A stretch of DNA of 64,000 nt from Oscillospiraceae bacterium (GTDB lineage Bacteria > Bacillota > Clostridia > Monoglobales > Monoglobaceae): NCBI GenBank assembly GCA_015068605.1, contig SVKF01000001.1, positions 1-64,000 on the forward strand, written 5' to 3'. Position 1 is the stretch's first letter, and the number at the start of each line of letters is the position of its first letter. Positions 10,229-62,573 of this stretch are shown here, one piece after another. The notes beneath the pieces are model-generated. The model was not told where the DNA came from. It did no database searches and worked only from the letters and a program-made list of their open reading frames with translations. Position numbers and translations under genes: made by a program.

Positions 10229-10535
10229 GGGGATGTTAAAAAACTCCGGATCGCAAGAAAAGAGGAAAAACAGCAGGGATTGAGAAAACCTTTTGTAGAA
10301 TATATCTCTGAATATACCTAAAAACAAGGGTAAAAAATCAAAAATTTTGATTTTTTAAAAATATATTATCTTTTCATGCTACGAAACAAACTTCGCCTCT
10401 CGGAGTACCTGCGTACGCCTTCGGGTAATCCAAAGCCTTGGCTTTGGCTCAGTTTGTCCGCTTTAAAGCTTTTTTCCTATCCCCTTAAAACCAAGGCGGT
10501 GTTTAAAAAGTCTTTTTGACTTTTTAAACACCGCC
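10229..10535 (+). repeat. full-length dispersed element, copy A (family 1)
   Basis: About 307 bases that recur in opposite orientation at 59736-60040 with only scattered differences. From the left: GTTAAAAAACTCCGGATCGC, an A/T-rich palindrome (about 10334-10356), inverted AAACAAACTT / CAGTTTGT flanking a 30-base core (10396-10425), an 18-base palindrome CCAAAGCC-TT-GGCTTTGG (10431-10448), CTTAAAACCAAGG, and the terminal 41-base palindrome (10495-10535). No convincing ORF or transposase is present. It lies 22 bases beyond the stop of the M18 peptidase gene, whose transcription its terminal palindrome probably ends. Confidence 0.9.
10495..10535. repeat. 41-bp palindromic repeat, copy 1
   Basis: GGCGGTGTTTAAAAAGTC, loop TTTTT, and the perfect reverse complement: an 18-bp stem. 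It is the right end of copy A and downstream of the M18 peptidase gene. Other copies start at 16774, 29629, 32008 and 59736. Confidence 0.95.
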
Positions 10536-10557
10536 TTTCGAGGTGATTTATTTCAGA

Positions 10558-15864: not shown

Positions 15865-16722
15865 ATGTTTTTTATTAAATTCAGAACAATTATCATATAC
15901 ATAGCCATACTCTCTCTGTTTTTAACACTTTCAGGACTATATATTATAGCTCCGAAAACACAACATACATCATCGGGCGAAAGCATAGAAGTGCCCATAA
16001 TTATGTACCACAGCGTTTTAAAAGATAAAAACAAATCGGGAAAGTTTGTTATTACTCCCGATGATTTTGAGGCAGATTTAAAATTTTTAAAAGAAAATGG
16101 GTACACTCCTATATTTATGAGCGATTTAATTAATTTTGTCAACAATAAGTCCGATTTACCGAAAAAGCCCATAATATTAACCTTTGATGACGGTTATTAT
16201 AATAATTATCTTTATGTGCTTCCCTTACTTAAGAAATATAATATGAAATCCGTTATTTCAATCGTTGGAATATATACCGATTTATATTCTCAAAATGAGG
16301 ACAAATCCGCAGAATACGCCCACCTTGACTGGGACACCGTAAACGAAATGATGAATAGCGGATTGATAGAATTTCAAAATCATTCATACAATCTCCACAC
16401 CATGGATAATGGCAGGAACGGCTCAAAGAAAAAAATCGGCGAAAGCCAAAACGAATATGAAAAGATGCTTTCCTACGACTTAACCCTTCTTCAAACCGAA
16501 TTTTTAGAGCACACGGGCTACACCCCCACGGTTTACACATACCCATTTGGGGCTGTCAGCAAAGCATCCTATGACATAATCAAGAAACTCGGTTTTGTTT
16601 CAACTTTATCTTGCGAGAACAAAACAAACTACATTTCCCCCGGGGACACGGAAGCTTTATATATGTTAAACCGTTTTATACGACCTGCATCAAAGTCATT
16701 ACAATCTATTCTGAAAAAATAG
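15865..16722 (+). CDS. secreted/membrane polysaccharide deacetylase
   Basis: A 285-residue NodB-domain carbohydrate esterase (CE4-like). A hydrophobic segment at residues ~9-28 exports or anchors it. The domain shows IIMYHSV, the metal-binding LTFDDGYYNN (Asp108/Asp109), a second His-containing segment FQNHSYNLHTM and YPFGAVS. The likely substrate is N-acetylglucosamine or N-acetylmuramic acid of peptidoglycan or another surface glycan; the sequence does not tell which. AAAGAAAGG precedes the ATG. It is a single gene, divergent from polA and convergent with clpX, with the palindromic repeat at 16774 between them. Confidence 0.9.
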   Translation: MFFIKFRTIIIYIAILSLFLTLSGLYIIAPKTQHTSSGESIEVPIIMYHSVLKDKNKSGKFVITPDDFEADLKFLKENGYTPIFMSDLINFVNNKSDLPKKPIILTFDDGYYNNYLYVLPLLKKYNMKSVISIVGIYTDLYSQNEDKSAEYAHLDWDTVNEMMNSGLIEFQNHSYNLHTMDNGRNGSKKKIGESQNEYEKMLSYDLTLLQTEFLEHTGYTPTVYTYPFGAVSKASYDIIKKLGFVSTLSCENKTNYISPGDTEALYMLNRFIRPASKSLQSILKK

Positions 16723-16730
16723 GGTATGTA

Positions 16731-16763
16731 GCAAAATGCACCGACCACTATTTTGCGCCCATC
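16731..16763. repeat. collapsed copy of the 48-kb hairpin element (family 2)
   Basis: GCAAAATGCACCGACCAC, as at the left end of the element at 48211-48414, is joined directly to CTATTTTGCGCCCATCC, as at its right end. The middle ~150 bases are missing. This is the pattern of an internal-deletion derivative. It lies between the deacetylase stop and the 41-bp palindrome. Confidence 0.7.
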
Positions 16764-16773
16764 CTAAAGCCAA

Positions 16774-16814
16774 GGCGGTGTTTAAAAAGTCTTTTTGACT
16801 TTTTAAACACCGCC
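16774..16814. repeat. 41-bp palindromic repeat, copy 2 (probable bidirectional terminator)
   Basis: The same 18-bp arms as the other copies with loop TTTTT, located between the convergent 3' ends of the deacetylase gene and clpX. It can act as a terminator for both because each arm ends the stem near a T-rich or A-rich stretch. Confidence 0.9.
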
Positions 16815-29580: not shown

Positions 29581-29596
29581 TATTGCCCATAGAGAA

Positions 29597-29668
29597 TGTT
29601 AAAAAACTCCGTATTCCCTTAAAACCAAGGCGGTGTTTAAAAAGTCTTTTGACTTTTTAAACACCGCC
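29597..29668 (+). repeat. internal-deletion copy of the family-1 element (copy C)
   Basis: GTTAAAAAACTCCG, identical to the left end of copy A, is joined to TATTCCCTTAAAACCAAGG and the terminal palindrome (29629-29668, loop TTTT), identical to its right end. The ~235 bases between are missing. It lies between the convergent ends of rpsT and the GH78 gene and can terminate the latter. Confidence 0.85.
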
Positions 29669-29717
29669 TGTTTATATCAACAACTTACATTATATATGTT
29701 TTCTTTAAATTAATCTA

Positions 29718-31901: not shown

Positions 31902-32007
31902 TTCCAACATTCTCCTCAATGTAAAAATATGTATAATTATAACATATGATTAATTCAAATTCAAGTTTTTTATCTATAAATCCGATAAAATAATTCTGCA
32001 CAGATCA

Positions 32008-32048
32008 GGCGGTGTTTAAAAAGTCAAAGAAACTTTTTAAACACCGCC
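32008..32048. repeat. 41-bp palindromic repeat, copy 4 (probable fucI terminator)
   Basis: GGCGGTGTTTAAAAAGTC, loop AAAGA, then the matching arm with one mismatch at the loop end (17-bp stem). It is followed by CTTGGTTTTAA as in the other copies. It lies 13 bases beyond the fucI stop, between fucI and the rhamnosidase. Confidence 0.9.
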
Positions 32049-32061
32049 TTGGTTTTAAACT

Positions 32062-48210: not shown

Positions 48211-48414
48211 GGGGCCAACGCAAAATGCACCGACCACACAAAACACAAAAAGCGAATAAAAAATCATTTTAAAAAGCGTAAATGGCAAAATATGCTTCAT
48301 AAATTTCTGAATTTAAAAGTGTTTTGTGTTTTGAATAAACCTCACCTCTCGGAGTACCTATGTACGCCTTCGGGATTCGGTTTATTGGGTCTGCGCTATT
48401 TTGCGTCCATCCCC
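48211..48414 (+). repeat. 204-bp nested-hairpin element (family 2, full copy)
   Basis: Outer arms GGGG-N-ACGCAAAAT (48211-48226) and ATTTTGCGT-N-CCCC (48399-48414) pair with small gaps; ACAAAACACAAAA pairs with TTTTGTGTTTTG; and AATAAACC (48334-48341 region) pairs with GGTTTATT, presenting a 30-base tip (48345-48374). That tip is identical over 30 bases to the one in copy B of family 1 (59846-59875, reverse strand). No ORF of note. A collapsed copy is at 16731-16763. Confidence 0.85.
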
Positions 48415-48418
48415 TAAC

Positions 48419-48456
48419 GAGGCTGTAGCAAAATGAAATCATTTTGCTACAGCCTC
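48419..48456. terminator. 16-bp hairpin downstream of the ZIP gene
   Basis: GAGGCTGTAGCAAAAT (48419-48434) pairs perfectly with ATTTTGCTACAGCCTC (48441-48456). The same stem (GGCTGTAGCAAAA) is found between DUF1540 and thrC at 21136. It probably ends ZIP transcription. Confidence 0.85.
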
Positions 48457-59715: not shown

Positions 59716-59735
59716 CATAGTTTTTAATATTTAAC

Positions 59736-60040
59736 GGCGGTGTTTAAAAAGTCAAAGGGACTTTTTAAACACCGCCTTGGTTCTAAGGGGATAGGAAAAA
59801 AGCTTTAAAGCGGACAAACTGAGCCAAAGCCTTGGCTTTGGGTTACCCGAAGGCGTACATAGGTACTCCGAGAGGCGAAGTTTGTTTCGTAGCTAGAAAA
59901 GATAATATATTTAAAAAAATCAAAAAATTTGATTTTTTTACCCCTGTTTTTAGGTATATTCAGGGATATATTCTACAAAAAATTTTCTCAATCCCTGTTA
60001 TTTTTCCTCTTTTCTTGCGATCCGGAGTTTTTTAACACCC
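59736..60040 (-). repeat. full-length dispersed element, copy B (family 1)
   Basis: The reverse complement of copy A (10229-10535) with substitutions and 1-base gaps. It carries the terminal 41-bp palindrome (59736-59776, loop AAAGG), the 18-base palindrome around 59824-59841, the 30-base core (59846-59875) and the left end near 60013-60040. Its middle reads through as a short ORF that is not convincing as a gene. It sits between the convergent U32-like gene and the next gene and fills that 338-base gap. Confidence 0.9.
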
Positions 60041-60053
60041 CTCTCTTTTTGAG

Positions 60054-62367: not shown

Positions 62368-62530
62368 ACACTTCCTGTGGTGTTCGTATTAACGAAACAA
62401 ATGTAAAACCAACAAACTATCTAAGGGAACTGTTCTCCGGGTGTGGCGCACATGCCTCCCGCTATGCGGCCAGTGGACTTGTAAAGCATTCGGGACGATA
62501 CCCACCTGCCATGCAGGTTTTTACTTTTTT
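62368..62530 (+). ncRNA. ssrS: 6S RNA (RNA polymerase inhibitor)
   Basis: A ~160-nt RNA that binds housekeeping RNA polymerase and mimics an open promoter. The ends match Firmicute 6S: CCTGTGGTGTTCGT at the 5' side and CGGGACGATACCCACCTGC ... CATGCAGG at the 3' side, so the closing stem forms; AACCAACA and CCGGGTGT lie between and pair with ATACCC. The stem GCAGG is followed by TTTTTACTTTTTTT, an intrinsic terminator. It is unlike SRP RNA: the GGAAGCAGCC tetraloop region is absent. Confidence 0.75.
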
Positions 62531-62573
62531 TCGTCTACGGCATATATGGGAAGTGTTTTTTTATCTAAAAACC

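What the first reader, a model, noticed from the sequence alone, without database searches (positions are those of the whole stretch)
10229..10535. Long structured dispersed element with an inverted copy 49 kb away
About 305 bases recur in opposite orientation at 59736-60040 with conserved ends, three nested palindromes and no transposase. One copy (29597-29668) retains only both ends. This is the signature of a non-autonomous mobile element (MITE-like) or a structured RNA family. I cannot name it.
Basis: partly seen in the sequence, partly recalled or inferred. Interest (0 to 1): 0.8.

Follow-up and report, generated by a model that had tools for sequence, protein, structure and literature searches.

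The report
Mobile structured repeat at gene ends
A roughly 310-base piece of DNA that folds into a conserved branched shape has spread to dozens of places in this gut bacterium and to many related Clostridia, almost always landing just behind genes; it appears in no RNA catalogue I could search, and what moves it is unknown.

Summary
The element at 10229-10540 recurs inverted at 59733-60041 (93% identity). The window also holds a third full copy of a sister family (48211-48456) and three remnants. The genome has at least 38 copies of its structured half. Related copies occur in 45 of 291 sampled genomes of the class (28 of 181 genera), but in none of 397 others sampled from the phylum. Rfam has no match. 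A helix and hairpin in the right half show strong compensatory change (15 of 21 pairs; 0 of 500 shuffles equal it). The mismatches identify the minus strand as the folding one. Mobility is supported by near-identical copies at unrelated loci and by sites empty in relatives. Copies lie at gene 3' ends: 41 of 69 between convergent genes, none between divergent genes. They carry terminator-like hairpins. I found no target-site duplication, no resident ORF and no constant neighbour gene. Reverse transcriptase, Y1 and IS110 transposase families are not required. Best reading: a non-autonomous mobile element with a strand-specific three-way-junction fold that doubles as a bidirectional terminator, moved in trans by an unidentified enzyme. 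Not filed as a MITE: no target-site duplication.

The parts
10229..10540 (-). Full-length family-A copy 1 (folding sense = minus strand)
10229..10262 (-). Terminal sequence LE, GGGGATGTTAAAAAACTCCGGATCGCAAGAAAAG: 3' end of the unit in folding sense; outer stem P1 plus one strand of P2
   Evidence: the coreless copy L016 carries it inverted at both ends
10331..10357 (.). Palindrome TAAAAAATCAAAAATTTTGATTTTTTA at the tip of P2; in relatives often a terminator-like hairpin with T-tail on the + strand
10370..10379 (-). Second strand of P2 (pairs with 10253-10262)
10378..10483 (-). Conserved structured half (covariance model R1: P3, P4, P5 and one strand of P1)
   Evidence: (E=2e-17)
10399..10425 (-). 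Most conserved 27-mer: hairpin P5 with its internal loop
10430..10447 (-). P4, optional and variable hairpin CCAAAGCCTTGGCTTTGG
10467..10484 (-). Right strand of outer stem P1 (AGCTTTTTTCCTATCCCC; GGGGATAGG start of the fold in minus sense)
10493..10537 (.). Terminal hairpin H0, 20-bp perfect stem, terminator-like, part of the mobile unit
59733..60041 (+). Full-length family-A copy 2 (folding sense = plus strand)
   Evidence: R1 match 59788-59893 (+), E=8e-18
48211..48456 (-).
   Evidence: R1 match 48328-48411 (-), E=1.6e-11
29594..29669 (.). Deletion remnant: left end joined to H0
16722..16814 (.). Chimeric remnant: family-B left end joined to family-A H0
32007..32058 (.). Hairpin-only (H0) copy

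Best explanation
It is a non-autonomous mobile repeat of Clostridia. In folding sense (minus strand of copy 1) the unit is: terminator-like hairpin H0; GGGGATAGG with strand 1 of outer stem P1; long helix P3, which carries GA-rich internal loops and the near-invariant hairpin P5 (plus optional hairpin P4); helix P2 tipped by a second palindrome; strand 2 of P1, ending ..TACATCCCC in relatives. Shown computationally: dispersal, confinement to gene 3' ends, compensatory change in P3/P5, strand polarity, site emptiness in relatives. Inferred: (1) the fold, as single-stranded DNA or RNA, is the substrate recognised by an enzyme supplied in trans; (2) new units settle where convergent or co-directional transcription ends, because the unit brings terminators for both directions and is tolerated only there; (3) copies then decay by deletion and template switching, leaving hairpin-only remnants that can still end transcripts.
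For: Copies: 89 pieces, 34 core 27-mers against 0 in the reversed-pattern control, 38 R1 matches. Range: 20/51 genomes of the order, 45/291 of the class, 1/398 in a phylum sample, that one being the own genome. Covariation: 14/21 pairs with double changes, 57 cells against 15.5+-3.3 shuffled; 101 distinct sequences, 98.0% of cells paired, 187 against 45.5+-5.3 (fitted alignment). Strand: 137 A.C against 20 G.T mismatches read on the + strand, i.e. G.U on minus. Mobility: five family-B copies identical over 101 bp at unrelated loci; six G568 copies nearly identical across the unit with unrelated flanks. The copy-1 site in the sister species holds a plain terminator instead, and the rpoD 3' end has the element in G049 but not in six orthologous loci read. 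Gene context: convergent 41, same-strand 28, divergent 0 of 69, against 13%, 72% and 15% of ordinary gene pairs. H0: mean energy of the 55 nt before the fold -17.5 against -6.4 kcal/mol shuffled. P2: helix of 8 bp or more in 82% of copies against 35% shuffled.
Against: No enzyme has been linked to it and no target-site duplication or circle has been seen, so transposition itself is inferred. Gene conversion between older copies could also produce identical copies. G.T pairs are tolerated in single-stranded DNA too, so RNA and ssDNA cannot be told apart. The strand count is dominated by a few columns of related sequences. Terminator activity and transcription are untested.
Confidence: 0.6

Rival explanations
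1. An expressed structured RNA gene or cis-regulatory RNA that is functional for the host (a 3'-UTR stabiliser or sRNA) and has been amplified because it is useful.
For: Strong covariation, minus-strand polarity, near-invariant P5 loop, a copy kept between genes that read as purH and purD in five species of one genus.
Against: In same-strand contexts more copies are antisense (19) than sense (9) to the flanking genes. In convergent sites little room is left for a promoter. The purH-purD copy in G019 has lost the core hairpin. Neighbour genes share no family. Absent from most relatives.
Confidence: 0.17
2. A classical MITE: a relic of a DDE-type insertion sequence with terminal inverted repeats, moved by that transposase.
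For: GGGG..CCCC ends; LE and H0 arm agree at about 14 of 18 positions; coreless copy L016 with the left end inverted at both ends; near-identical dispersed copies.
Against: No target-site duplication in 26 inspected copies. The sequence most conserved between genera is the internal P5 hairpin, not the ends. No autonomous element with these ends was found.
Confidence: 0.15
3. A REP/REPIN-like element mobilised by a Y1 (RAYT or IS200-type) transposase.
For: Hairpin-based, strand-specific, gene 3' ends, no target-site duplication; long Y1 proteins occur in several high-copy genomes (G025, G049, G050, G009, G034).
Against: G030 (18 copies, 89% complete), G040, G051 and G001 have no Y1 match. The own-genome Y1 match reads as an IS200-type transposase. 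The only Y1 gene beside an element (L292) is best read as a chance insertion behind its terminator.
Confidence: 0.08

Closest known systems
Bacterial MITEs, including SPRITE/RUP/BOX of Streptococcus pneumoniae (PMC10969869)
   Same: Short, no ORF, dispersed, intergenic, nesting and chimeras; SPRITE is terminator-like
   Different: No target-site duplication found; conserved covarying one-strand fold shared across genera; no autonomous partner found
bcr1-bcr18 repeats of the Bacillus cereus group (PMC3446304)
   Same: Interspersed intergenic repeats, some MITE-like, some with conserved secondary structure, many transcribed in UTRs
   Different: Different host range (class Clostridia); here one family combines mobility and a covarying fold; strict gene-3'-end location
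GTAG/CGTC REPs and REPINs with RAYT transposases (PMC3733652)
   Same: Palindromic, high copy, mostly downstream of genes and between convergent genes
   Different: REPs are 20-40 bp hairpins; this is about 250-310 bp with a 3-way junction; Y1 genes do not track it
HEARO / omega-RNA-bearing ORF-less elements (from general knowledge)
   Same: Structured RNA-encoding dispersed elements without ORFs
   Different: No Rfam similarity and no recurrent gene found nearby; TnpB/IscB families not searched genome-wide

Membership tests
MITE | Short (under about 600 bp), no transposase gene | tested here: met
   about 310 bp; no transposase ORF in any copy examined
MITE | Terminal inverted repeats | tested here: inconclusive
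   Imperfect, about 14/18 between LE and H0 arm; nearly perfect only in coreless copy L016
MITE | Target-site duplications | tested here: not met
   None around 11 family-B, 9 family-A and 6 G568 copies
MITE | Autonomous relative with the same ends | tested here: inconclusive
   None in the loci held; MAG contigs often break at the repeat
REP/REPIN | 20-40 bp palindrome with GTAG or CGTC tag | tested here: not met
   Unit of about 250-310 bp with a multi-helix fold
REP/REPIN | Linked RAYT transposase | tested here: not met
Rfam RNA families | Match at gathering score | tested here: not met
Group II intron / retroelement | Reverse transcriptase in host, domain V | tested here: not met
   RVT_1 absent from G000, G049, G050, G030 (assemblies 79-89% complete); no Rfam intron match
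IS110 (bridge-RNA) element | IS110-type transposase in host | tested here: not met
   PF02371 absent from G025, G030, G049, G050
TnpB/IscB omega-RNA element | TnpB/IscB gene sharing the ends | not tested

The most novel reading that the evidence does not exclude
The minus-strand fold is an RNA cofactor or template of its own mobilisation (a bacterial SINE- or bridge-RNA-like parasite) that homes to transcription terminators and replaces them, using an unknown enzyme shared by many uncultured Clostridia.
Probability: 0.15. Interest if true: 0.88.

Novelty: new variant of a known kind. Interest (0 to 1): 0.6.

Why it matters
It is a high-copy structured repeat family across at least 28 genera of mostly uncultured gut Clostridia, absent from Rfam. 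It ties together three things usually described apart: mobility, a strongly covarying one-strand fold and gene-end terminators. It may reshape 3' ends of transcripts genome-wide, it breaks MAG assemblies (many contigs end in it), and its P5 hairpin is a clear handle for finding the binding protein.

Tried and rejected
RAYT/Y1 mobilisation: looked promising, weakened. Reverse transcriptase (group IIC-like targeting of terminators): RVT_1 does not track copies. Before seeing the G568 copies I read H0 as the host's own terminator, i.e. an insertion target; one search shows that hairpin and linker move with the unit. IS110/bridge RNA. Phage or plasmid carriage: no viral-contig match to the core pattern and no convincing phage or plasmid hit. 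Riboswitch or known RNA. Conserved neighbour gene: 265 neighbouring proteins give no recurrent family larger than five. Left ends without a core were extra tandem left ends or chance matches, not autonomous elements. Literature searches for the core sequence or an equivalent clostridial repeat found nothing.

Full report
OBSERVATION. The two copies are real: 10229-10540 (+) and 59733-60041 (-), 93% identical end to end, with a perfect 20-bp terminal hairpin, a 13-bp internal palindrome and folding far beyond shuffled sequence (z=-7.5). The 29.6-kb remnant keeps both ends as stated. The genome (a 1.59-Mb MAG, about 83% complete, 28 contigs) holds 89 match pieces. A 27-base core occurs 34 times against 0 for the reversed pattern. 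A sister family (B) with different flanking sequence but the same plan has about 25 left-end copies, five of them identical over 101 bases. One family-B copy lies in the window at 48211-48456.

ANATOMY. Reading copy 1 on its minus strand: hairpin H0 (10537-10493), GGGGATAGG.. as one strand of outer stem P1, helix P3 with the optional hairpin P4 and the near-invariant hairpin P5, helix P2 ending in the palindrome 10357-10331, and the second P1 strand ending ..AACATCCCC at 10229. In relatives P1 reads GUGCAGA/UCUGCAC and P2 CCGCAAAAAG/CUUUUUGC. P2 pairing of 8 bp or more is present in 82% of copies against 35% of shuffles.

STRUCTURE IS UNDER SELECTION, ON ONE STRAND. On 29 diverse sequences 97% of cells pair; 14 of 21 pairs show double changes; 57 double-change cells against 15.5+-3.3 in shuffles; sliding partners by 1-3 columns destroys it. 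RNAalifold recovers essentially the same structure. On 101 distinct sequences (aligned to the model, hence leaning to it) 187 double-change cells against 45.5+-5.3. Non-Watson-Crick cells in P3/P5 read A.C on the plus strand 137 times and G.T 20 times, which means G.U on the minus strand; tandem GA mismatches in P3 and GA-rich bases in the P5 internal loop also belong to that strand. The folding molecule is therefore the minus strand, as RNA or as single-stranded DNA; these data cannot say which. Part of the asymmetry comes from a few columns in related sequences.

DISTRIBUTION. Covariance model R1 finds the element in 20 of 51 genomes of the order (1-42 copies), 45 of 291 of the class (28 of 181 genera) and, in a phylum-wide sample of 398, only in the own genome (at most nine candidates per genome were scored, so weak or few copies could be missed). 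No viral contig holds the pattern. Rfam has no match.

MOBILITY. (a) Six copies in G568 are nearly identical over the whole unit, including H0 and the linker, while the flanks are unrelated; family B behaves likewise. (b) In the sister species G001 the copy-1 site, between orthologues of the same genes, carries a plain intrinsic terminator and no element. (c) Behind rpoD (recognised by its C-terminus) G049 has the element, and six related genomes read at the same place have other terminators or none. (d) Tandem units about 120-240 bp apart, deletions between short direct repeats, A/B chimeras and an IS200-type insertion inside a copy show ongoing rearrangement. No target-site duplication is visible: left flanks tend to be A-rich, right flanks T-rich. 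Transposition is therefore inferred; gene conversion between old sites remains possible for part of the pattern.

LOCATION. Of 69 copies with clear neighbours, 41 lie between convergent genes, 28 between same-strand genes and none between divergent genes; ordinary gene pairs in the same contigs are 13% convergent, 72% same-strand and 15% divergent. Units often begin within a few bases of a stop codon. The 55 bases before the fold are strongly hairpin-forming (-17.5 against -6.4 kcal/mol shuffled, -9.5 in nearby sequence). A simple yes/no hairpin criterion in the same script did not discriminate (60/78 against 54/78 shuffled), so the energy comparison is the usable one. I infer that the unit supplies terminators in both directions.

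WHO MOVES IT. No ORF is carried. 265 neighbouring proteins show no recurrent family. In the order, RVT_1 is absent from G000, G049, G050 and G030, IS110 transposase from G025, G030, G049 and G050, and Y1 transposases from G030, G040, G051 and G001; incompleteness of MAGs limits each of these. The one Y1 gene beside an element is best read as an ordinary insertion behind its terminator. TnpB, IscB, DDE and site-specific recombinase families were not tested.

OLD COPIES. In five species of one genus a copy sits between genes that read as purH and purD (gene names from reading the sequence, not from a family search); in one (L253) the core hairpin is deleted. Copies can thus be inherited vertically and decay, which argues against an essential host function at that site.

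COMPARISON. It works like a bacterial MITE or a terminator-like repeat (SPRITE; PMC10969869), shares location with REPs (PMC3733652) and the mix of repeat and structure with bcr elements (PMC3446304). It fails the target-site-duplication criterion of MITEs and the tag and RAYT criteria of REPs, so I do not file it as a member of either.

VERDICT.

Noticed in passing
window 62369-62556 (+): 6S RNA gene, the only Rfam match in the window (83.6 bits).
   Followed up: no
L116, L117, L124, L130, L134, L151, L157, L190: A second context of the P5 core: only the hairpin closed by a T-rich/A-rich stem, often followed by a TTCTGCATC-like string, in other Clostridia; may be a minimal form or a separate RNA.
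   Followed up: partly
L301:1-340 (G000:C7) and L013: An IS200-type transposase end with its palindromic right end inserted inside copies of the element.
   Followed up: partly
L342, L344, L345, L347 (G488): Tandem arrays of two to three units, about 240 bp apart, joined end to end by a few bases.
   Followed up: partly
L293, L297, L299: Pairs of about 250-275-aa Y1-type transposase genes close together in one locus, without flanking copies of this element.
   Followed up: partly
L292:2555-3145: A RAYT-like gene whose coding frame contains the palindrome GTAGGGGCGATTCACGAATCGCCC, also seen at intergenic sites of the same genome (L256).
   Followed up: no
L248-L253: Ancient copy between genes that read as purH and purD shared by five species of one genus, decaying in one of them.
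   Followed up: partly
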